34,076 nt of DNA from Thiotrichales bacterium (GCA_020341835.1 CP070838.1:2477465-2511540), one strand, 5' to 3'. Positions 17,676 through 27,357 are shown, numbered from the stretch's first letter. Made by a program: numbers and translations. The notes: a model not told the origin generated them from the sequence alone.

Positions 17676-18158
17676 TTACTCTTCTATTAGTACCTCGGTT
17701 CCGATGTCAACCAGTCGGTACAGCTCAATCACATCCCGGTTAAGCATTCGAATGCAGCCGATTGATGCCGGTGTACCGATCTTGTCTTCCTCGCTGGTAC
17801 CATGAATGTATATGTAACGGTTGTACGTGTCCACATACCCACCCTGGTTTCTGCCGGGTTCCATACCCTCCAGCCACATGATGCGGCTGGTAATGACGTC
17901 CTCCGGCAGCTCAACACCCTGCTCGATGCAGTCCTGCAGCAGACCTTTTGGTTGACGGCCAATCATTACCATGTTGATCGGCATCGCACCACCAATCTTG
18001 TCCCTGATCCGGTGCAGGCCCAGCGGTGTTTTTTCACTGCCGTTTTCGTTGCCAACACCGTACTTCGACGTCGACACGGGATATTCACGCTCGATGTCGC
18101 CCTCGTCGTTCAGGACATACAGCTTCTGCTCGCCTACGTTAATACGGATGGAATACAT
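17676..18158 (-). CDS. L,D-transpeptidase (YkuD domain) without signal peptide
   Basis: Family enzymes form 3-3 cross-links or attach proteins to peptidoglycan. The protein is 160 aa and consists almost only of a YkuD domain: N-terminal strands IRINVGEQKLYVLND, then VSTSKYGVGNENGSEKTPLG, and the catalytic motif YIYIHGTSEEDKIGTPASIG with CIRM following, so His119, Ser132 and Cys135 are in place. No signal peptide or membrane segment precedes the domain, and the next ATG upstream is out of frame, so the protein as read would stay in the cytosol. That is unusual for this activity. It lies upstream of metZ with a 1-nt gap and 144 nt after the phospho-cassette, so it may be at the end of that transcript. 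Confidence 0.9.
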   Translation of the reverse strand: MYSIRINVGEQKLYVLNDEGDIEREYPVSTSKYGVGNENGSEKTPLGLHRIRDKIGGAMPINMVMIGRQPKGLLQDCIEQGVELPEDVITSRIMWLEGMEPGRNQGGYVDTYNRYIYIHGTSEEDKIGTPASIGCIRMLNRDVIELYRLVDIGTEVLIEE

Positions 18159-18302
18159 CAGACTTTTTCCGGTTTGGTTCAGAGAAGTTTACAGCACAAT
18201 CCAGGGTGGTTGCTGTTGCAAAGGCGGGTCGACGGGACTGCAGTGAATCAGCGAAAACACCGGTTATCAGTAAAAACGTCTTGAATACTGGCGGCAGGCG
18301 TA

Positions 18303-18575
18303 TCAGCAGTCCGATATCTTAAGCTGCTTTTTCAGCTTGTCAGCTTTACTGCCCTGCCAGGAAATGCGCACATCGAGCACATTAAGTTCTGCGTTGCTCG
18401 ATGCCTTGATGGCGAGGTTCAGCAGACCCGACGGTTCCAGAACAATTTCGTTGTCCTCATCACTGAACCTCAAGGTGCCTTTTTCCAGACCCTGTTGCAG
18501 AGACGATAGCAGTTCTACGATTGTCTCCCTGTCCTGCATCGACTCGTGACGAAAATCGTGATCGCCGTTTTTCAT
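18303..18575 (-). CDS. amphi-Trp domain protein (phospho-cassette gene 8)
   Basis: Small cytosolic protein, 90 aa, of the amphi-Trp family, which is defined computationally by an amphipathic pattern ending in a conserved tryptophan; no function is known. The open frame reaches 18611, but GGAG 6 nt before the ATG at 18575, and the 1-nt gap to the upstream stop (TGATATG), fix the start. Features seen are an N-terminal helix (RETIVELLSSLQQGLEKG), a strand pair (TLRFSDEDNEIVLEPSG), and a final strand VLDVRISWQ with the tryptophan near residue 74, then a basic tail. From memory this family is one of the small components of the GAK system that also includes the ATP-grasp and HprK-related kinase B encoded upstream. 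It could be a carrier or substrate of those enzymes; that is inference. Confidence 0.85.
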   Translation of the reverse strand: MKNGDHDFRHESMQDRETIVELLSSLQQGLEKGTLRFSDEDNEIVLEPSGLLNLAIKASSNAELNVLDVRISWQGSKADKLKKQLKISDC

Positions 18576-18576
18576 A

Positions 18577-19911
18577 TCACACTCCGCTTCCAAGTAAATT
18601 GTTCGGATCAAATACTTTCACGTAGGGATGATCCGTGCTGATACCGAGTATCTTTTTATCCGGCCGAATGATGGTCACCCCTGCACCAGCCCCTTTCAGG
18701 CCATCTCTGGCCCTGGAGTGCCTGTCCAGCGTGACATCACATTCGAAGTGGACGATACTTTTTCGCATGGTAATGCGCTGTCCGTTACGCATACTCTTGT
18801 GACCATGGACGATGACATGCATATCATTGGCATGCACCTGTCGTGCGCCTGCACCGGTCAATTGCCTGTCCCCGGGCCGGTACTTGGTCCGAATCGCGTT
18901 GGCCACCGGGCCATAATAAAACCGCATCGGATCACCCTTCAGCTGTTTCTTGAATTCGCGGTTAAGCTGCTTGACGCCATTCTGATCGATCAGGTGCGCA
19001 ATGTTGTTATCCAGCCCGGCATGGACAAACAGGAATGATCCCTTGCGCATCGCCAGGCGCATGCGTTTGTAGAACCAGCTGAACTCGCCTTTGTCACGCA
19101 GAAACAGGCGCTGCCACTGCAAGGCTGCAGCGTAGGCTCTGCGAATGGACAGTCCGGCCTCTTCACATCGCTGTTCAAAATCCACCTGTTTCTCCCTGAC
19201 GCGCTGCAGTTCCTTATCGATCACCTTTTGTGGCAGCAGTTCAGCGACTGCCAGCGGGAATTCATCGAACCATCGATCAGGCGGGTACAGACGCTGCCGG
19301 CATTGCTTTTTACCCGGCACATTCTTGAGGTGATGTGCGCGTCCGAGGTAGCGGTCGTTTAATTCCTTCAAAAACGGCACAGCCTTTGCGCCCATGCGTA
19401 TAAAGAAGTGCTCGCAGCCGGGTGCGTCACGACGGTTGACGCTGCGCATGCCGAGCATCACTCTGACATCGTGATTACCGGCCAGAATACGCATATCGGC
19501 GCCGCGTCGATGCAGTTTATTCAGGGTTTTCAACAATTCGAGATTACTCGGGCCCTTGTCGAAGCAGTCACCGCCGATCAGAAACTGCGCCCGCTTGCCC
19601 TCGCCGGTGAGCTTCAGCTGCCTGCGATCCCTGGCTTTTAGTCTGACACCGCCGGACGCAACCAGCGAGGCCGTCAGGGCCTCGGCATCCGCGTGCAGGT
19701 CACTGAAAAAGTAAACCGTTCTGCCCGGCCAGGACCATTCATACCTTTCAACCAGTTGCTGCAGTTGCTGCGCAGTCTGCCTATGGCTTTGCCTTCTTGA
19801 CTGCAACGAACGCTTTTTTCCGTGCAACCATGGCTGGGTTTCAAGCGGCAGCTGAACACCCGTGTATTTGACACCGCGATAGTTCGGTACAAGCTTGCGA
19901 TGATGATTCAT
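18577..19911 (-). CDS. PPP-like metallophosphoesterase (phospho-cassette gene 7)
   Basis: Calcineurin-like phosphatase of 444 aa. The metal-binding motifs are all present: FFSDLHAD (D-x-H, about residues 68-75), GGDCFDKGPS (113-122), and GNHD (145-148), followed far downstream by FVHAGLDNN and IVHGHKSM, giving the two histidine motifs. The motif spacing and the DKGP form of the second motif resemble PPP-type and diadenosine-tetraphosphatase-like enzymes rather than nucleases. An insertion of about 130 residues rich in Arg and Lys lies between GNHD and HAG. The substrate is unknown. It starts 2 nt after the histidine phosphatase stop and is followed by the amphi-Trp gene after 1 nt, so it is firmly within the cassette. 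Confidence 0.9.
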   Translation of the reverse strand: MNHHRKLVPNYRGVKYTGVQLPLETQPWLHGKKRSLQSRRQSHRQTAQQLQQLVERYEWSWPGRTVYFFSDLHADAEALTASLVASGGVRLKARDRRQLKLTGEGKRAQFLIGGDCFDKGPSNLELLKTLNKLHRRGADMRILAGNHDVRVMLGMRSVNRRDAPGCEHFFIRMGAKAVPFLKELNDRYLGRAHHLKNVPGKKQCRQRLYPPDRWFDEFPLAVAELLPQKVIDKELQRVREKQVDFEQRCEEAGLSIRRAYAAALQWQRLFLRDKGEFSWFYKRMRLAMRKGSFLFVHAGLDNNIAHLIDQNGVKQLNREFKKQLKGDPMRFYYGPVANAIRTKYRPGDRQLTGAGARQVHANDMHVIVHGHKSMRNGQRITMRKSIVHFECDVTLDRHSRARDGLKGAGAGVTIIRPDKKILGISTDHPYVKVFDPNNLLGSGV

Positions 19912-19913
19912 GA

Positions 19914-20615
19914 TCAGTCCAGCCCGTTACCTGCATCGCGAATTTTCCAGTCGCCACCCACGTGGTGCCAGCTGTCATCGTCCCGATACTCGATCAATAC
20001 CGGCTGTGCATGGTGCATGCTCAATTGGGCCAGTTGCTCGTATTCGAGCACACCCAGGTGAAACGCCGCATGACGAAACGCGGCGCCGTGGCCGACAAAC
20101 AGCTTGACGGTATCGACGTCGGCCGATGTTCTCAGCTTTTCCATTTGCTGCCGGAGGTGCCCCGCCACCCTTTCGCCAGCCTGGATCAACGACTCTGCAC
20201 CCTGAAATGGCAGACAGTAATAGCTGTTCGACTTCCAGTCTTTCGGCGGTTCTTCGTAACGTGGATCTTCAACGATAATTTTTTCGATCTGCTGGATCGT
20301 CAGGTTGGCCGCAGCACCGAGACCGCGCTCTGCCAATGCGTCGTAGCTGTCAATCAGCGTTGAAGGCATTTGATGTTGATACAGCCTTTCAACGAATACC
20401 AGTGCGGTTTGCCAGGCGCGCAGCATGTGCGAACTGTCGATTCGTTTCGCAACTGCCAGCTTGTTTTTTTCCAGTAACAGCGCGAAGTGATCGGCCGCTT
20501 CGAGCACGGTTTCACGCCCCTGCGCCGTCACGCCATAGGGCTGATGCGCGCTCGGTGTATCCGCTTGCTGGTGGTATTCACCATGACGTATCAGTGCTGC
20601 AATCACTCTTGCCAT
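19914..20615 (-). CDS. Histidine phosphatase family protein (phospho-cassette gene 6)
   Basis: Phosphatase of the phosphoglycerate-mutase-like superfamily, about 233 aa. The RHG catalytic motif is near the N-terminus (ALIRHGEYHQQ; the phospho-accepting histidine is about residue 11), with SSHMLRAWQTA supplying the usual arginine, and VGHGAAFRHAAF the second histidine. ATG at 20615 is preferred over 20627 because it places RHG at the normal distance and leaves only a 4-nt gap after the upstream stop; an overlapping start is possible. The substrate is unknown. Its genetic linkage to kinases and other phosphatases suggests that it removes phosphate from a product made in the same pathway. Confidence 0.88.
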   Translation of the reverse strand: MARVIAALIRHGEYHQQADTPSAHQPYGVTAQGRETVLEAADHFALLLEKNKLAVAKRIDSSHMLRAWQTALVFVERLYQHQMPSTLIDSYDALAERGLGAAANLTIQQIEKIIVEDPRYEEPPKDWKSNSYYCLPFQGAESLIQAGERVAGHLRQQMEKLRTSADVDTVKLFVGHGAAFRHAAFHLGVLEYEQLAQLSMHHAQPVLIEYRDDDSWHHVGGDWKIRDAGNGLD

Positions 20616-20619
20616 ACAA

Positions 20620-21588
20620 TCAACCATCCCGTTTAATGAAATCGGCCAGCGATTCGATCATCGGACACAATGACTGCTCCTTGACCAGACCGAGCGCCTC
20701 ATCGGTCGACACCCATTGTCTGCCGCGGTGGGTTTCTTCCCATTCACTGTCAGGCAGAACCTCCCTGACCTTCATAGCATAGACTTCGACGTCGCAGATT
20801 GCGCCCCACTTGGGGTACTGATAGCAGCCGAGCATGGATTTACTCACCGTGCCCCTGATACCCGCCTCTTCATAGGCCTCGCGTGCTGCCGATTTCTGTG
20901 CGGACAAACCCGGCTCATGGATCCCCTTCGGCACAACCCAGTGATTGCGTTTGCTCGAACCTATCAGCATGATCTCCAGGCGCTTGCCTTGCTTGCGATA
21001 CGGTATCACAGCCGACTGCCGGTAATAATAGGCCGGACGGTCGCGTTTTTCCCTGCCATCGGGCGCCGGAAACGGAAATTTTTTCGGCAGGTCGTCCGGC
21101 CGGGTCAATGATTTTAACTGGGCGCAGTCGAATTCAAGCTTCTTCCAGTTTCCCGGCATCACCAGACGCGCCAGCGTTGCGGCCGGCAGCAGTTTACCGT
21201 CATCCGGCAAGGGCGCCTTGCCACCCAGCAGGTACAGCATCAGTTCGGTCAGTCCGGGGTTATGACCCACGAGCATGATCCTTTCCGCTTTCTTCGGACA
21301 TCGCGCGAGCACATTCAGCAGTGATTTGAGACTGGCATTGTACAGCTCCCTGTCGCTAACAATCGACGACGCGTCCATACCCATGGCCTTGCACAATTTC
21401 TGCGTTGATACAAAAGCACGCTCTGCCGGCGAACTGATAATGTAATCCGGCCTGATGTTTTTCTGCCACAACCAGACACCCATGCGCTGACAACCGCGTT
21501 TGCCCCTGTCTGTAATCGGGCGAGTAAAATCATCGCCGTCGGACTTGACGGCTTTACCATGCCTGAAAATTAACAGTTCCCGTGCCAC
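20620..21588 (-). CDS. SixA-like phosphatase fused to Nudix hydrolase (phospho-cassette gene 5)
   Basis: Two hydrolase domains in one chain of 322 aa. Residues about 1-150: histidine phosphatase of SixA type, with FRHGKAV (RHG at 9-11), SSPAERAFVST (52-62) and VGHNPGL (107-113). A linker of about 30 residues follows. Residues about 185-320: Nudix domain; the box runs GIHEPGLSAQKSAAREAYEE then AGI, where the REAYEE-AG core (236-243) is intact but the first glutamate of the consensus is Leu. Start is GTG at 21588, 45 nt after the HprK-like gene, with AGG upstream. A Nudix plus histidine phosphatase pair is known from mycobacterial MutT1, there in the opposite order, acting on oxidised nucleotides and dinucleoside polyphosphates. 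Confidence 0.9.
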   Translation of the reverse strand: MARELLIFRHGKAVKSDGDDFTRPITDRGKRGCQRMGVWLWQKNIRPDYIISSPAERAFVSTQKLCKAMGMDASSIVSDRELYNASLKSLLNVLARCPKKAERIMLVGHNPGLTELMLYLLGGKAPLPDDGKLLPAATLARLVMPGNWKKLEFDCAQLKSLTRPDDLPKKFPFPAPDGREKRDRPAYYYRQSAVIPYRKQGKRLEIMLIGSSKRNHWVVPKGIHEPGLSAQKSAAREAYEEAGIRGTVSKSMLGCYQYPKWGAICDVEVYAMKVREVLPDSEWEETHRGRQWVSTDEALGLVKEQSLCPMIESLADFIKRDG

Positions 21589-21633
21589 GGACCGCCTACC
21601 TTTTCAATTGCCCGAAAATCATCAAACTTTCCA

Positions 21634-22734
21634 TCAGTCCATCAGTTGCTCGTGACAGATCGTTCCCAGCGCCTCGAAATCCACGCAGCCACTTGCCTCG
21701 AAGACCTCAATATCCGCCAGTGCCTGCAGATAGATATCAGCCTCAGGCATGTTGTCATCACGGTTGAAATAACCTCGGGCGTCAACATAGAACGGGCCGG
21801 ATGGTTTCATGATAGCCGCCAGCAGATCAGGACGCCGGTCCAGGTCAACCCTTTTAACATCGAGCTTTTCAGCCGCACCATGCTTCCAGTTCAATACCAG
21901 AAATCTGCGCAGGCCGGTTTCGTGCTGAATCCGGTTGCGCCCGTAGAGCTCGCCAATATGCGCATCATACTTGTCTTCGAGCTTCCAGAGTTCATCTTTA
22001 TCCAGCTGCAACAGCTGTGCACGCGACGCCTCATCGATCAGTGGAAACAGGCGCGGATTGTTCACGATCGTACCCGGGTTGATGCGCGGCAGCTTGGGAA
22101 TGCCGACGGCGTGCGTTTCGTCTGGCTGACGACGCACCAGCAACCTGTCGTTGGTTACAAAGCGCGTTACGTCGTCTTCGAGCAGGTTCAGCATCAGTGT
22201 CGATTTACCGCCCCCGGAAAGACCCGCGATAGCAAGGCCCTTGCCGTTACGCGACAATGCCGAGGCGTGGCAGAGCACATAGCCATCGTGCTGCAACCAG
22301 TTCAGAAACTGTGAATTGATGAAATTGATGACCTGGTTGTCATAGTCGAGACAGGGACCGGCGGCGATCAGGTCGTGATCGCTCTGCAGGAACAGCATAC
22401 CGGTACGCACCTTCTGCACCAGCCTGCCACCTGAAAAGTCATGGATAGCATCCTTGCGCCCGGTTTTGCCCGGTTCACGTTTCCAGTCGACAAATTCAAT
22501 ACCGGCATCAACGATATCACGATCGATCGCGGTAATCTGGGCCCGTGCGTGATCACACGAAGGCACCAGTACATGTGAGAAATAATCCCGCATGCGCTGC
22601 ATGAACAGCACCGAATTACTGCGAACACGCAGGCTATAATCCAGCAACTTTAAACACAGTGAGTCCGCCTGCAGTTCGGACTCACCCGTAAGCAACTGCT
22701 TCATACCTGCTATGGCATCGTTCACGGCATTCAT
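21634..22734 (-). CDS. HprK-related kinase B (phospho-cassette gene 4)
   Basis: P-loop kinase of the HPr kinase/phosphatase C-terminal type, about 366 aa from ATG 22734, chosen because the upstream stop and this ATG form TGATATG, the same arrangement as in front of the amphi-Trp gene. An alternative ATG at 22767 would overlap the ATP-grasp gene by 32 bp. The Walker A motif GLSGGGKST lies at about residues 171-179, after LCHASAL, the strand that precedes the P-loop in HprK; DDVTRFVTNDRLLV follows. No HPr or PTS gene is seen, so the target is unlikely to be classical HPr. Family HprK-related kinase B is known only from the GAK gene context, together with the ATP-grasp protein encoded just upstream. 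Confidence 0.9.
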   Translation of the reverse strand: MNAVNDAIAGMKQLLTGESELQADSLCLKLLDYSLRVRSNSVLFMQRMRDYFSHVLVPSCDHARAQITAIDRDIVDAGIEFVDWKREPGKTGRKDAIHDFSGGRLVQKVRTGMLFLQSDHDLIAAGPCLDYDNQVINFINSQFLNWLQHDGYVLCHASALSRNGKGLAIAGLSGGGKSTLMLNLLEDDVTRFVTNDRLLVRRQPDETHAVGIPKLPRINPGTIVNNPRLFPLIDEASRAQLLQLDKDELWKLEDKYDAHIGELYGRNRIQHETGLRRFLVLNWKHGAAEKLDVKRVDLDRRPDLLAAIMKPSGPFYVDARGYFNRDDNMPEADIYLQALADIEVFEASGCVDFEALGTICHEQLMD

Positions 22735-22735
22735 A

Positions 22736-23623
22736 TCAGGCGAGTTGTTCCAGTACGTATTCAACATAACGATCGGCCACGTTTATACCCAGCCCTTCTT
22801 TCGCACCGCGAAAACCGCCGAATGCCGACACCTCGAAAACGATCGGGCCATCTTCGGTTTCCGCCATGTCCACCGTGGTGTAATCCATATTGAACAGGCT
22901 TTGTGCATGCTGCGCGATCTCGATCCAGCTGCTGTCCGGTTCAGCTGCGGCATAACGCCCACCATGATGTATCGTCGTATTCCATGAATTACCTTCTGAC
23001 ACCCTGGCATAGGCACCCAGGTACTCCCCACCAAGAAAAACCATACCGAGATCCTGCCCGGGCAGCTGCATTTTTTTCTGGATATACATCATCGGGTGTT
23101 GCTTGTGGAATTCGGTTATCTGTTGATGACGAACCGGTGTGGGATCATTTGCATTAACCACAATCATGCCCCTCGCCTTGGTCGAGAACAGCGGCTTGAA
23201 TACCGCGCTGCCGTATTGCTGCACGACTGACTCGGCCTGCCCGGTATCTTCAGTGATCAGTGTAGGCGGCATCGGTATACCTGCATTGGCCATCGTTGCG
23301 GTACAGCTCAGGCGATCGATCAGGCGCAGCATGCTGAGCGCCGGGCTGAACACACGCACACCGTTCGCTTCGGCTACGCGCAACAGCTCAAGACGATCAA
23401 TCGAGTTGGGGCTGTATTCGCGACTGATTTTTTTCACGATAATCGCGTCAAGTGTGCACAGATCCTGGTCCCGGTAGAGTAATCTTTTGCCTGCAAGGTC
23501 AAGCGCAACCTCGGCCATGTCAATAACATGACGGGCGCCGGTTCCGGCCTCGACCGCATCAGCCAGTGTCTCAGTGGACCATTTTCCGGGCAGGCCAACC
23601 ACGCCGATTGCCGGGCTAGCCAC
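22736..23623 (-). CDS. GAK-system ATP-grasp enzyme, RimK-like (phospho-cassette gene 3)
   Basis: ATP-grasp ligase of 295 aa, probably forming an acyl-phosphate intermediate and an amide or ester bond. The start is GTG at 23623, fixed by GGAGG 6 nt upstream; it overlaps the preceding gene by 8 nt. Landmarks are IDRLSCTATMANAGIPMPPT (about 102-121), the ATP-binding lysine in AVFKPLFSTKARG (Lys143), YIQKKMQLPGQDLG (180-193), and the C-terminal metal region VDMAETEDGP then IVFEVSAFGGFRG. In RimK relatives the last metal site is usually E-x-N; here it reads EVS (Glu264, Ser266). The fold and the HprK-related partner match the GAK ATP-grasp family, of unknown substrate. Confidence 0.88.
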   Translation of the reverse strand: MASPAIGVVGLPGKWSTETLADAVEAGTGARHVIDMAEVALDLAGKRLLYRDQDLCTLDAIIVKKISREYSPNSIDRLELLRVAEANGVRVFSPALSMLRLIDRLSCTATMANAGIPMPPTLITEDTGQAESVVQQYGSAVFKPLFSTKARGMIVVNANDPTPVRHQQITEFHKQHPMMYIQKKMQLPGQDLGMVFLGGEYLGAYARVSEGNSWNTTIHHGGRYAAAEPDSSWIEIAQHAQSLFNMDYTTVDMAETEDGPIVFEVSAFGGFRGAKEGLGINVADRYVEYVLEQLA

Positions 23624-25256
23624 TGAATACCTCCATCACCGGTACCCGGTATTCAGCACTGCTGTCAGGCCCCAGCTTGACGATCTGTTCGAGCAGATAG
23701 CGGGCACGCAGAAACATACCACGCGCCAGGTTACGATCCAGGATAAAGCGCGTCGATGTTGCCAGCGATCGCATCAGCCCGAAGGCCAGGCGCATTTCGA
23801 AAGTCGTGTCCTTGTTTTTTGCCGCAAACTCTGCCGCGATGCAGTAGAACTGGTAGATCACCGCGGTAATCCGCTTTCGAATCTCGGGATCCAGAACCTG
23901 CAGGCGGTAATTCGACACCATGAACACGGATACATCCTGCACATAATCCATGTAGCGTGACCGGTGTAGATCGACATAACGAAGCTGCCCGTTATCGGCA
24001 TCATAGATGATATTGTCGATGTTGAAATCACCGTGAATATAGACCGAAAACGGCGCCTCCAGGCCGGACTCAATGACCGCGGCCTGGGCAGTGAGACTGG
24101 CGAATGACTCGATGGGATAACCGCAGATTGATTTGTTATGGTGCTGGAACTCCGGATGCACCGCGTAAACATCATTCAGGCGTTTCTCCAGCTGGCGCAT
24201 AAATCCGGCGCAAACCGGTTTGTCTGCCAGCGTTTCAGTCCAGACGCTATACAGGGTTTTCTTCAGTTCCTGTAAGGCTGCCTGCAGCATCTCGGTCGAC
24301 TCATTAAGCACGATTTGCTCGAAGGTTTGTCCGGACAGGTGCTCGATCAACAACGATGCCGATTTTCCCTTTTTTTTCCAGGAAAGAATCTGTGGCGCCA
24401 GCCCTGGGAAGACATCATGCCAGTTCTCCACACCCTTGCGTTCACGCTTGAGTTTCTTGGTATAGCCCTGTTTGAAAATCGCCGGATAACTGCCGCTTTC
24501 ACCATCGGATAACTGTACGCTGGATATAGCGGCGCCGGATCGTGTTTCAGCAACATTCCTGATCTGCATTTCCTCAGGATTGGCGCTGTCGGTGATTTTG
24601 CTGAAATCCTGCATGGCCTGAAAGCGCGTACTGTCCATCACCATGCCCAGGTTACTGGAGATTATCGACTCGCTGATCGTCAGCAGGCTGTCACCCATGC
24701 GTTCGATAGCGTAAGCGGAGAAGGACAGACTGAGCAGATTCTCGGCGTCGGATGTATCACGCAGCGATGCCGCGTTCTTCTTTAAAAATTTCCTGAACTT
24801 GCGTTCCAGTCTTCGCTGTATGCGGCCGATCTTGATTGCGATCTGGGTATCGTTCTCGAACAGTGCAGTATGCACCATGGCCACCGCCTCGATTACAAGA
24901 TCGATCTGGGATAACAGCCTCGGAAAATTTTTCTTTCCGGGATCTTCAAGATAGATAGACTGTTGTGCAAACTCCTCGCCAAGCTCTGCTATGCGTTCAA
25001 GCTCGGTCGCTATAATATCGATAGCGCGCACACGCAGCACCTCGGGGACATCCGAATTATCAGCTTCCACCAGATACCGGTAACAGGCTTCGTGAATGCG
25101 TTGTTTCAGGTTTGAAATATAGCCGCTGCGTTTAAAAATATTTTCTGCGGCTTCCGGCGAGGTGTCATCAAGGTAGAGCTTGATGCTTTCGAGTCGACTC
25201 ACCAGTTCGGTCTGGAGAAACTCGAGGTTATGCCGGATGGTCTGCTGCGGATCCAT
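23616..25256 (-). CDS. PhoU-like domain fused to APH-type kinase domain (phospho-cassette gene 2)
   Basis: Two-part protein of 546 aa. Residues about 1-225 form helical repeats with two PhoU signatures: ELERIAELGEEF (about 85-96) and AIERMGDSLLTI (about 183-194). Residues about 255-510 resemble the aminoglycoside phosphotransferase/choline kinase fold: an N-lobe strand YPAIFKQGYTKKLK, then SLLIEHLSG, and the catalytic Brenner loop YIHGDFNIDNIIYD (His408, Asp410, Asn415) followed by the Mg-binding aspartate in RYVDLHRSRY (Asp429). All catalytic residues appear present, so an active small-molecule or protein kinase is likely. PhoU domains usually bind metal clusters and regulate phosphate uptake. 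ATG follows the Nudix stop by 6 nt. I do not know this fusion from a described pathway. Confidence 0.86.
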   Translation of the reverse strand: MDPQQTIRHNLEFLQTELVSRLESIKLYLDDTSPEAAENIFKRSGYISNLKQRIHEACYRYLVEADNSDVPEVLRVRAIDIIATELERIAELGEEFAQQSIYLEDPGKKNFPRLLSQIDLVIEAVAMVHTALFENDTQIAIKIGRIQRRLERKFRKFLKKNAASLRDTSDAENLLSLSFSAYAIERMGDSLLTISESIISSNLGMVMDSTRFQAMQDFSKITDSANPEEMQIRNVAETRSGAAISSVQLSDGESGSYPAIFKQGYTKKLKRERKGVENWHDVFPGLAPQILSWKKKGKSASLLIEHLSGQTFEQIVLNESTEMLQAALQELKKTLYSVWTETLADKPVCAGFMRQLEKRLNDVYAVHPEFQHHNKSICGYPIESFASLTAQAAVIESGLEAPFSVYIHGDFNIDNIIYDADNGQLRYVDLHRSRYMDYVQDVSVFMVSNYRLQVLDPEIRKRITAVIYQFYCIAAEFAAKNKDTTFEMRLAFGLMRSLATSTRFILDRNLARGMFLRARYLLEQIVKLGPDSSAEYRVPVMEVFSG

Positions 25257-25262
25257 GATCGA

Positions 25263-25730
25263 TTAGATTAGCTGCCCTGCATAGACCCGCGACGAAACCT
25301 GACTCTGCAGTAATTTGGTGTAATCTGCCGGAACAAGATTGATATCCGCCAGTTGCCTGACAGGAACCCAGAGCACATCGACCTGATGCTTGTCCGGGCG
25401 TGGTCCATTCTGCGCTTGATAACTGTCGTCCACTGTACAGCTAAACAGGAACTCGACCAGCTGGCGCGTGGACGGTGGCACGGTCTGCCTCAACTTGAAA
25501 TAGTCACCAACGAACAGCAGATCAACGACCTTGACCTGCGTACCGATTTCCTCTTCGCATTCACGTCGTAACGCCTCGGTAAGCTGCTCACCCTGTTCCT
25601 GGGCACCACCGGGGAGTGCATAACGCTCACTGCCGTTTTCATCGACCTTGCGCTGCAGCAGTACTGCCCCGTTCCTGATAATAACCGCACGAACAGCGTT
25701 ACGTATTCCCGGAATCAGATTTTCCATCAT
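25263..25730 (-). CDS. Nudix hydrolase (phospho-cassette gene 1)
   Basis: Hydrolase cleaving a nucleoside-diphosphate-linked or other diphosphate substrate, about 155 aa from ATG 25730 (an upstream GTG at 25781 has no Shine-Dalgarno and is less likely). The Nudix box is a perfect consensus match: GAQEQGEQLTEALRRECEEE then IG, with G, E, RE, EE and G at the correct spacing. ALPGG precedes it and VEFLFSC follows, typical of ADP-ribose or nucleotide hydrolases, but substrate specificity cannot be read. It is separated from purF by 124 nt with no terminator seen, and followed by the PhoU/kinase fusion after 6 nt, so it is taken as the first cassette gene. Confidence 0.9.
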   Translation of the reverse strand: MMENLIPGIRNAVRAVIIRNGAVLLQRKVDENGSERYALPGGAQEQGEQLTEALRRECEEEIGTQVKVVDLLFVGDYFKLRQTVPPSTRQLVEFLFSCTVDDSYQAQNGPRPDKHQVDVLWVPVRQLADINLVPADYTKLLQSQVSSRVYAGQLI

Positions 25731-25854
25731 TCTGTCAACACTATGGTGGCATGCTGTATTAACAGTAACAGTTATTTGCACAGAATTAAAATGGTTTTCC
25801 GCCTTTCGTATGGCCTGATAGCCAAAGCCCGGGCAGGCGACGGGAGCGGTGGGA

Positions 25855-27357
25855 TCAGAGCTCGACAGTTTCTGCCGACTGACTGCCCCGGCGTTTCATC
25901 TTGGCCGCATCATTGCGCTGCAATTCCAGCCTGCGGAAATAATCTTCATCGATATCGTTGGTAACATATTCACCATCGAAACACGAGCAGTCAAACTTCT
26001 GCAGCATGTCGTTACCCTTCTGTACCGCCTCAATAAGGTCCTCAAGGTCCTGGTATATCAGCCAGTCTGCCCCAATCGCCTCAGCAATTTCTTCGACCGA
26101 ACGGTTGTGGGCAACAAACTCCTCCGGCGCCGGCATATCAATACCATAGACATTGGGATAACGCACCGGTGGTGCAGCCGACGCCATATAGACTTTTTTA
26201 GCCCCCGCCTCTCTTGCCATCTGGATGATCTGTTTTGACGTGGTACCACGCACAATCGAGTCATCGACCAGCAATACATTCTTCCCCTGAAACTCGAGGT
26301 CAATCGGGTTCAGTTTCTGGCGCACTGATTTTTTGCGCTCTGTCTGTCCCGGCATGATAAAGGTGCGGCCAATGTATCGGTTCTTGATAAAACCTTCGCG
26401 GTATTTCACGTTGAGGTGAAAGGCTACTTCAAGCGCTGATGTTCGGCTGGTATCAGGTATGGGTATAACAACGTCAATATCATGCTCGGGAAATTCGCGC
26501 AGAATCTTTTTGACCAGCTTCTGCCCCATTCTCAGCCGCGCCTTGTACACCGACACATCATCCATAATGGAATCTGGTCGCGCAAAATAGACGAACTCGA
26601 AAATGCACGGAACAAGACCGGGTTTGTCCGCACACTGACGGGTGTGGAGCGTCCCGTTCTGTTCGATAAAGACCGCTTCGCCCGGCATCAGATCACGCAC
26701 CAGTTCAAAACCCTGCGCCTGCAATGCAACACTTTCCGACGCAATCATGTAATCCGTACCGGCAGACGTTTCGCGCTTGCCGTAGACCGCAGGTCGTATG
26801 CCGTTCGGATCGCGGAATGCAAGCACACCCTTACCGACGATCATGGCAATAACCGCGTAACCACCCTTGCAGCGTTTATGCACTGCATTGACAGCGGTAA
26901 AAATATCTTCGGTATCGAATTCCGGCTTGGCCAGCAACTGGAGCTCGTGCGCAAACACATTGAGCAGCGCCTCGGTGTCGGACTCGGTATTCAGATGACG
27001 CATATCGTCCATGAACAGCTGTTCCTTGAGCGCATCGGTATTCGTCAGATTACCATTATGGGCAAGCGCAATACCGTAAGGCGAGTTCACATAGAAAGGC
27101 TGTGCTTCGAGCGAAGATGAGCAGCCTGCGGTCGGGTAACGCACATGGCCGATACCCATATTGCCGCGCAGTCGTTCCATGTGCTGTTTGAAAAACACAT
27201 CGCGTACGAGACCGTTGCCTTTACGCATGAAAAACCTGTCCTGCTCACAGGTCATGATGCCGGCGGCATCCTGTCCGCGGTGCTGCAACACGGACAATGA
27301 CTCGTACAGATCGAGATTGACCGGTGTATGACTGACTATACCAACAATGCCGCACAT
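25855..27357 (-). CDS. purF: Amidophosphoribosyltransferase
   Basis: First committed step of purine synthesis: transfers the glutamine amide nitrogen to PRPP, giving 5-phosphoribosylamine. Length is 500 aa, close to the 505-aa E. coli enzyme. The glutaminase domain starts with the nucleophile Cys2 ([14 protein letters not shown]), with [10 protein letters not shown] and LAHNGNLTN downstream. The phosphoribosyltransferase half has the PRPP loop [17 protein letters not shown]. The C-terminus ([16 protein letters not shown]) resembles the E. coli form rather than the Fe-S Bacillus form. It starts 3 nt after the cvpA stop, so the two are coupled, as in other gammaproteobacteria. Confidence 0.97.

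What the first reader, a model, noticed from the sequence alone, without database searches (positions are those of the whole stretch)
18303..25730. Eight-gene phospho-transfer cassette built around GAK-system proteins
Seen: eight minus-strand genes with mostly 1-6 nt junctions or overlaps. They encode two kinases (PhoU/APH-like fusion, HprK-related kinase B), one ATP-grasp ligase, five phosphatase or Nudix domains in four proteins, and a small amphi-Trp protein. Known: ATP-grasp, HprK-related kinase B and amphi-Trp are families of the computationally defined GAK system, whose function is unknown; its CofD-like and XXXCH members are absent here. Inferred: enzymes that add and remove phosphate on one shared target, perhaps a diphosphorylated small molecule or a modified amphi-Trp protein. 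This is the best candidate for an undescribed system in the window.
Basis: partly seen in the sequence, partly recalled or inferred. Interest (0 to 1): 0.88.

Follow-up and report, generated by a model that had tools for sequence, protein, structure and literature searches.

The report
Phosphate-linked kinase and phosphatase gene cassette
Eight neighbouring genes form a real, widely shared bacterial module of kinases, phosphatases and a ligase that databases name but nobody has explained, and its gene neighbours and control sites in related bacteria point to a role in storing or sensing phosphate.

Summary
Eight minus-strand genes (18303-25730) encode a Nudix hydrolase, PhoU-APH kinase, GAK ATP-grasp, HprK-related kinase B, SixA-Nudix, histidine phosphatase, PPP-type metallophosphatase and amphi-Trp protein. 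The grouping is not chance. Among 47 related loci with full flanks, 44 hold all six core families and 25 hold all eight. Gene order is mostly kept across Gamma-, Zeta- and Alphaproteobacteria and on Rhodobacterales plasmids. In 369 class genomes, all 12 with HprK-related kinase B also have the GAK ATP-grasp.

The new result is a phosphate link. Related cassettes sit beside a polyphosphate-binding CHAD protein with a ParA-like ATPase, Na/Pi and Pit transporters, PstS or PhoR, in several arrangements. PhoB-box-like sites precede 12 of 54 cassettes against 6 of 261 other genes. In the window's own genome the CHAD-ParA pair lies between PPK1 and the pst operon. The second Nudix domain is most like human DIPP1 among solved structures.

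Best reading: a phosphate-controlled phosphorylation/dephosphorylation module tied to polyphosphate. The substrate is unknown. The window's own copy has no upstream Pho box, and PPK1 is not significantly enriched with the system. CofD-like is absent here; XXXCH could not be judged.

The parts
25263..25730 (-). Nudix hydrolase (155 aa from ATG at 25730); first gene of the cassette; canonical Nudix box (G..E..REU.EE.G) intact
   Evidence: (PF00293 65.8 bits); found in 27 of 47 full-flank loci
23616..25256 (-). PhoU-like domain fused to an APH-type kinase (546 aa); kinase motif HGDxNxxN...D invariant in 21 homologues
   Evidence: PhoU 44.9 bits, APH 28.5 bits; best PDB: Pseudomonas PhoU 4q25, then APH(3'); 47 of 47 loci
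22736..23623 (-). GAK system ATP-grasp enzyme (295 aa, GTG start), RimK/MptN-like; metal-binding ExN replaced by ExS (FEVSAFGG) in all 13 aligned homologues
   Evidence: TIGR04356 436.3 bits, cut-off 300; best PDB: RimK-type ligases, LysX
21634..22767 (-). HprK-related kinase B (377 aa; a later ATG at 22734 is possible); Walker A GxGKST invariant; fold of ATP-dependent PEPCK / HprK
   Evidence: TIGR04355 335.7 bits, cut-off 200; pLDDT 93; PEPCK Z 16.2 over 300 residues; HprK C-domain Z 13.9
20620..21588 (-). SixA-like histidine phosphatase domain fused to a Nudix domain (322 aa); Nudix half closest in PDB to human DIPP1; SixA catalytic His lost in some homologues
   Evidence: SixA 4hbz E 1e-16; DIPP1 9t4k E 1e-12; 33 of 47 loci
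19914..20627 (-). Histidine phosphatase, branch 1 (237 aa); catalytic R14, H15, R70, E100, H180 invariant in 20 homologues
   Evidence: 45 of 47 loci
18577..19911 (-). Calcineurin/PPP-type metallophosphatase (444 aa); metal-site D71, H73, D115, N146-H147, H297, H371 invariant; nearest solved relative is ApaH (Ap4A hydrolase)
   Evidence: 45 of 47 loci
18303..18575 (-). amphi-Trp protein (90 aa from ATG at 18575; the longer 102-aa TTG form at 18611 is not shared by homologues); one helix plus four strands, no match among solved folds
   Evidence: (TIGR04354 57.7 bits, cut-off 31); 46 of 47 loci

Best explanation
The eight genes are one operon-like module: the GAK system in an enlarged form. Its most likely job is to add, remove and rearrange phosphate groups in response to phosphate supply, coupled to the cell's polyphosphate store. 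Inferred working: the PhoU-kinase fusion reads phosphate status through its PhoU half and phosphorylates a target. The PEPCK/HprK-type kinase phosphorylates it at a second site. The RimK-like ATP-grasp enzyme ligates or activates a carboxyl group on that target or on its carrier. The histidine phosphatase and PPP-type phosphatase remove single phosphates, and the two Nudix enzymes cleave phosphoanhydride (pyrophosphate) bonds. Amphi-Trp is the non-catalytic partner, either acceptor or adaptor. Shown here: linkage of the genes, intact catalytic residues, neighbourhood and Pho-box association in relatives. Inferred: sensing, order of reactions, substrate, and the role of amphi-Trp.
For: (1) Co-conservation: six-family core in 44 of 47 loci with full flanks; HprKB over cut-off in 12 of 369 class genomes, all 12 with GAK ATP-grasp (Fisher p 8e-21). 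(2) Phosphate/polyP neighbours in 24 of 88 distinct loci: CHAD+ParA, Na/Pi cotransporter with PhoU, PstS-like, PhoR, PiT+DUF47. CHAD lies inside or directly beside the operon in L101, L111, L120, L122 and G290 (L135+L036), and a second HprKB copy in G153 lies beside CHAD-ParA (L132). L122 also has CYTH. CHAD linkage needs 10 changes on the ATP-grasp tree for 11 loci, so it is not one inherited accident. (3) Genome profile: CHAD in 11 of 14 GAK+ and 93 of 355 GAK- genomes (p 1e-4). (4) Own genome: PPK1-CHAD-ParA-PstS-like-PhoU-permease run. (5) Pho-box-like sites upstream of 12 of 54 cassettes vs 6 of 261 controls (p 2e-6); 60 permuted motifs gave at most 4. Best case: CTGTCACATTGCTGTCAT, starting 40 nt before the CHAD-ParA-GAK operon of L120. 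(6) Nudix half closest to DIPP1, a family that cleaves PP-InsPs, Ap(n)A and polyP (PMC8064635, PMC6522730); CHAD binds polyP (PMC6537752).
Against: No Pho box lies upstream of the window's own cassette, and none at the scanned threshold beside the own ppk1-pst cluster. PPK1 is not significantly enriched with GAK (11/14 vs 207/355, p 0.11) and no match was listed for G098, G218 and G265. About three quarters of sampled loci show no phosphate gene nearby, though many are truncated. Family resemblance of Nudix, PPP and HP enzymes does not fix a substrate. The ATP-grasp enzyme resembles ligases, which polyP metabolism does not obviously need. Genomes are related, so the Fisher p values are not true probabilities.
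Confidence: 0.5

Rival explanations
1. Cofactor or small-metabolite pathway: the ATP-grasp enzyme (nearest named family MptN, a cofactor glutamate ligase) and the CofD-like protein (CofD makes the phosphodiester of F420) build an unknown phosphorylated cofactor. The kinases make its phosphorylated building block and the phosphatases/Nudix enzymes trim or salvage it.
For: grasp_GAK scores next best against MptN (148 bits) and RimK family (112); CofD_rel_GAK divergent and adjacent in 36 loci; HprKB fold aligns best with PEPCK, a small-molecule enzyme.
Against: CofD is absent here and next to only 21 of 47 full-flank cassettes. No oxidoreductase or other cofactor user was seen as a recurrent neighbour; recurrent neighbours are phosphate genes. 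Four hydrolases are more than a simple pathway needs.
Confidence: 0.2
2. Protein phospho-relay: amphi-Trp is the HPr-like substrate, phosphorylated by HprKB and/or PhoU-APH, modified by the ATP-grasp enzyme and dephosphorylated by the phosphatases.
For: amphi-Trp is present in 46 of 47 loci and is the only non-enzyme; it has an invariant Ser24 and a near-invariant His22; HprK and RimK families modify small proteins.
Against: The amphi-Trp model has no HPr fold match. Ser24 stands just before the long helix and may be structural. HprKB aligns with PEPCK as well as with HprK. The C-terminus of amphi-Trp is not conserved, which argues against C-terminal ligation.
Confidence: 0.18
3. Anti-phage defence system carried on mobile sites.
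For: Patchy distribution, plasmid copies, and a variable purF-ldt site in relatives.
Against: No relevant PADLOC match; one weak Nudix hit to a candidate family. Neighbours and control sites are phosphate-related.
Confidence: 0.02
4. Chance cluster of unrelated housekeeping enzymes in one genome.
For: Each domain family is common on its own.
Against: Same families, mostly same order, in dozens of genera of three classes and on plasmids.
Confidence: 0.01

Closest known systems
GAK system as named in NCBIfam/PGAP (TIGR04354, 04355, 04356, 04357, 04358)
   Same: amphi-Trp, HprK-related kinase B and GAK ATP-grasp are present over curated cut-offs; NCBI gives these names to the same genes on Rhodobacterales plasmids.
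   Different: No CofD-like member in this genome. Five further families (PhoU-APH, histidine phosphatase, PPP phosphatase, SixA-Nudix, Nudix), not part of the named set, are linked to it; the first three are as tightly linked as the named members.
Pho regulon / polyphosphate gene clusters (pst-phoU-phoR, ppk1, CHAD, CYTH)
   Same: Recurrent neighbours, Pho-box-like sites, a PhoU domain, and CHAD-ParA beside PPK1 and pst in the own genome.
   Different: None of the eight enzymes is a known polyP enzyme; PPK1 is not always present; the window's cassette has no Pho box.
Eukaryotic inositol pyrophosphate enzymes (PPIP5K: ATP-grasp kinase + histidine phosphatase; DIPP/Ddp1 Nudix)
   Same: Similar mix of enzyme classes; the Nudix half matches DIPP1 best in PDB; both tied to phosphate homeostasis (PMC8064635, PMC11323792).
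   Different: The ATP-grasp enzyme matches RimK-type ligases, not inositol kinases; the histidine phosphatase is branch 1; no inositol gene was seen nearby.
HPr kinase/phosphatase (HprK)
   Same: C-terminal P-loop kinase domain (Z 13.9).
   Different: Scores 18 bits against the HprK model with cut-off 240; the whole chain aligns with PEPCK.
RimK / MptN alpha-L-glutamate ligases
   Same: ATP-grasp fold and full-length alignment.
   Different: Below the cut-off of both families; ExN metal ligand replaced by ExS in all 13.

Membership tests
GAK system | GAK ATP-grasp enzyme (TIGR04356, cut-off 300 bits) | tested here: met
   436.3 bits
GAK system | HprK-related kinase B (TIGR04355, cut-off 200 bits) | tested here: met
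   335.7 bits
GAK system | amphi-Trp domain protein (TIGR04354, cut-off 31 bits) | tested here: met
   57.7 bits
GAK system | CofD-like member (TIGR04357); treated as accessory, because loci to which NCBI gives GAK names can lack it | tested here: not met
   no match in the whole own genome; adjacent in only 21 of 47 full-flank loci; absent beside the NCBI-named Tritonibacter plasmid locus
GAK system | XXXCH domain protein (TIGR04358); accessory | tested here: inconclusive
   no match in own genome, but the control genomes also gave none
HPr kinase/phosphatase (HprK) | Match to TIGR00679 over its cut-off (240 bits) | tested here: not met
   18.4 bits
RimK family glutamate ligase | Match to TIGR00768 over its cut-off (143.4 bits) | tested here: not met
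   111.9 bits
Pho regulon member | PhoB box upstream of the operon in this genome | tested here: not met
   best site upstream of the window's Nudix gene scores 4.0
Pho regulon member | PhoB-box-like sites enriched upstream of homologous operons | tested here: met
   12/54 vs 6/261, p 2e-6; permuted motifs at most 4
Pho regulon member | Transcription rises on phosphate starvation through PhoB | not testable with these tools
   needs RNA measurements
Polyphosphate metabolism module | Tight co-occurrence with polyphosphate kinase PPK1 | tested here: not met
   11/14 vs 207/355 genomes, p 0.11
Polyphosphate metabolism module | Recurrent linkage to polyP-binding CHAD proteins | tested here: met
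   10-11 distinct loci in several arrangements; CHAD in 11/14 vs 93/355 genomes
Anti-phage defence system | Match to known or candidate defence models | tested here: not met
   only the Nudix protein hits one candidate model weakly

The most novel reading that the evidence does not exclude
The module makes and breaks a bacterial polyphosphorylated or pyrophosphorylated signal, a counterpart of eukaryotic inositol pyrophosphates, that reports phosphate status and controls polyphosphate granules placed by a CHAD-ParA pair.
Probability: 0.1. Interest if true: 0.93.

Novelty: new variant of a known kind. Interest (0 to 1): 0.68.

Why it matters
The GAK system has had family names in NCBI's annotation but, as far as the held library shows, no function. 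The expanded gene set and the phosphate/polyphosphate link turn it into a testable problem with simple readouts (polyP content, Pi response). If right, many marine and symbiotic bacteria carry a third layer of phosphate control beside Pst/PhoBR and PPK/PPX, and the CHAD-ParA pair suggests active placement of polyphosphate granules.

Tried and rejected
Literature: five searches for GAK, amphi-Trp, HprK-related kinase and model accessions found no paper; a sixth mixed search found only unrelated papers. Search on ParA and polyP granules gave nothing specific. Fold search of amphi-Trp: no usable match, which does not show the fold is new. PPK1 profile: not significant. Pho box in the window and own ppk1 region: none convincing. 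Promoter/terminator scans in the window: no more than chance. Rfam: nothing. Defence models: nothing relevant. I looked for a bare insertion site: the same-family genomes hold other genes between purF and ldt, so no clean empty site was seen. I considered Ser24 of amphi-Trp as a proven phosphosite and rejected that, since it could be structural.

Full report
Observation. The eight ORFs exist as described. Pfam and NCBIfam give, in transcription order: Nudix hydrolase; PhoU domain fused to an APH-type kinase; GAK ATP-grasp enzyme (TIGR04356, 436 bits); HprK-related kinase B (TIGR04355, 336 bits); SixA-Nudix fusion; histidine phosphatase; calcineurin/PPP-type phosphatase; amphi-Trp protein (TIGR04354, 58 bits). 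Homologues show that amphi-Trp most likely starts at 18575 and Nudix at 25730. Only the HprKB/SixA-Nudix junction (45 nt) is wider than a few bases. The genes lie between purF (upstream) and an L,D-transpeptidase gene and metZ. No promoter or terminator signal stood above chance and no Rfam RNA was found.

Is it a unit? A profile search over 369 genomes of the class found GAK ATP-grasp over cut-off in 13, plus one frameshifted copy. HprK-related kinase B is over cut-off in 12, all within those 14 (Fisher p 8e-21). A scan of 84,980 species genomes returned 493 relatives, of which the best 80 loci were kept. The sample is therefore biased to close relatives and says little about distant GAK loci. 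After removing six duplicate loci, 88 remain. Of the 47 with enough flank, PhoU-APH is in 47, HprKB 46, amphi-Trp 46, histidine phosphatase 45, PPP phosphatase 45, SixA-Nudix 33, Nudix 27, CofD-like 21. The six-family core is complete in 44 and all eight families in 25. Order is mostly Nudix, PhoU-APH, ATP-grasp, HprKB, SixA-Nudix, HP, PPP, amphi-Trp, with several rearranged versions (L036, L039, L067, L098, L107, L112). Seven- and six-gene forms lacking SixA-Nudix sit on Rhodobacterales plasmids, where NCBI already uses the GAK names.

Enzymes. Catalytic residues are invariant in the histidine phosphatase, the PPP phosphatase, the APH kinase domain, the HprKB Walker A motif and the stand-alone Nudix box. 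The SixA half has lost its catalytic histidine in some homologues (RQG or HHG), and the first Glu of its Nudix box is Leu or another residue in place of Glu in the ten aligned sequences. The ATP-grasp enzyme has ExS in place of the usual ExN metal ligand in all 13 (the usual motif is general knowledge). Nearest solved relatives are RimK/LysX for the ATP-grasp, PhoU and APH(3') for the fusion, SixA and human DIPP1 for the SixA-Nudix fusion, and weakly ApaH for the PPP phosphatase. HprKB was modelled well (pLDDT 93) and aligns with ATP-dependent PEPCK over 300 residues (Z 16.2) and with the HprK kinase domain (Z 13.9). Amphi-Trp is one helix plus four strands with no usable match.

Phosphate link, neighbours. 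Clustering the remaining ORFs of the loci gave recurrent families: CofD_rel_GAK, divergent and adjacent (36 loci before removing duplicates); CHAD with a ParA-like ATPase (12-13); Na/Pi cotransporter with PhoU domain (13); PstS-like binding protein (8); PhoR (6); PiT with DUF47 (4); an extra histidine phosphatase (8) and an extra Nudix (7). Of 88 distinct loci, 24 have at least one phosphate or polyP gene. CHAD-ParA is linked in different ways: inside the operon before amphi-Trp (L101), after amphi-Trp (L111), before PhoU-APH (L120, L122, the latter with CYTH), between Nudix and PhoU-APH in G290 (CHAD without ParA; split over two contigs, L135 and L036), divergent behind CofD (L034, L035, L051, L065, L077), downstream (L098), and beside a second HprKB copy in G153 (L132). 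CHAD linkage needs 10 changes for 11 loci on the ATP-grasp tree, although truncated contigs inflate that number. CHAD is a polyP-binding module often found in polyP operons (PMC6537752). In the window's own genome the nearest CHAD-ParA pair is about 1.2 Mb away, in the run PPK1, CHAD, ParA, PstS-like, PhoU, permeases (G000:C1 about 1303600-1311528).

Phosphate link, control sites. I wrote a PhoB-box matrix from the E. coli consensus (CTGTCAT, 4 nt, CTGTCAT; my own knowledge) and scored upstream regions of cassette start genes and of other genes in the same loci. Sites scoring 12 or more precede 12 of 54 cassettes against 8 of 277 other genes; true phosphate genes give 5 of 23. With shared divergent regions removed it is 12 of 54 against 6 of 261 (p 2e-6), and 60 column-permuted matrices gave at most 4 in the cassette set. 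Some sites are on the opposite strand and may serve the divergent neighbour. The clearest cases are L096, L113 and L120, where a site scoring 21.8 starts 40 nt before the CHAD-ParA-GAK operon. The window's own cassette has no such site.

What speaks against. PPK1 is in 11 of 14 GAK+ and 207 of 355 GAK- genomes, not significant. The phosphate link rests on relatives, not on this copy. Genome comparisons are not corrected for relatedness. The substrate is not identified, and a cofactor pathway or a protein relay remain open.

Mechanism. I commit to a phosphate-responsive phosphorylation/dephosphorylation module tied to polyphosphate, with PhoU-APH as the likely sensor kinase, HprKB as a second kinase, the ATP-grasp enzyme as ligase, four hydrolases as the reverse arm and amphi-Trp as acceptor or adaptor (confidence 0.5 for the phosphate/polyP link with this division of labour; lower for any single step). 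The Nudix similarity to DIPP1, a family acting on PP-InsPs, Ap(n)A and polyP (PMC8064635, PMC6522730), leaves open a more radical reading, a bacterial pyrophosphorylated messenger (0.1).

Membership and novelty. It is a GAK system by three of three tested name-giving features; CofD-like is absent and XXXCH undecided. The eight-gene form and the phosphate link are, in the held library, undescribed; I rate it a new variant of a known kind.

Noticed in passing
G000:C1 about 1303600-1311528 (L133:3672-11529): PPK1, CHAD, ParA-like ATPase, PstS-like protein, PhoU (with a C-terminal LMW-phosphatase-like domain) and permease in one run: a candidate system for placing polyphosphate granules; CHAD-ParA pairs are also found in genomes without GAK (e.g. 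L142, L143).
   Followed up: partly
L132:6707-7054 (also L034, L035, L051, L060, L065, L072): Small helix-hairpin-helix protein with a long lysine/glycine-rich tail next to ParA and PstS; resembles in kind AlgP, the histone-like protein that spaces polyP granules in Pseudomonas (PMC9239181).
   Followed up: partly
L132:1721-2785: Second HprK-related kinase B in G153, away from its GAK cassette, beside extra Nudix, extra histidine phosphatase, CNNM, CHAD and ParA.
   Followed up: partly
L101:11105-12796: AAA ATPase and RloB-like pair, reminiscent of a defence gene pair, inserted inside a GAK operon between the PPP phosphatase and CHAD.
   Followed up: no
window 18158-25855: The interval between purF and the L,D-transpeptidase gene is a variable site: the cassette here and in L046, L047 and L049, different genes in same-family genomes G137 and G346.
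   Followed up: partly
L042:7727-10480: Reduced form in G297: amphi-Trp, APH kinase (no PhoU half recognised by Pfam) and ATP-grasp, with no HprKB over cut-off in that genome.
   Followed up: partly
L051: A contig labelled Halobacteria archaeon carries a proteobacterial-type GAK cassette and CHAD-ParA; the label or the bin is probably wrong.
   Followed up: no
L134: CHAD also pairs with DUF47-PiT phosphate transporter genes in a genome (G343) without GAK.
   Followed up: no
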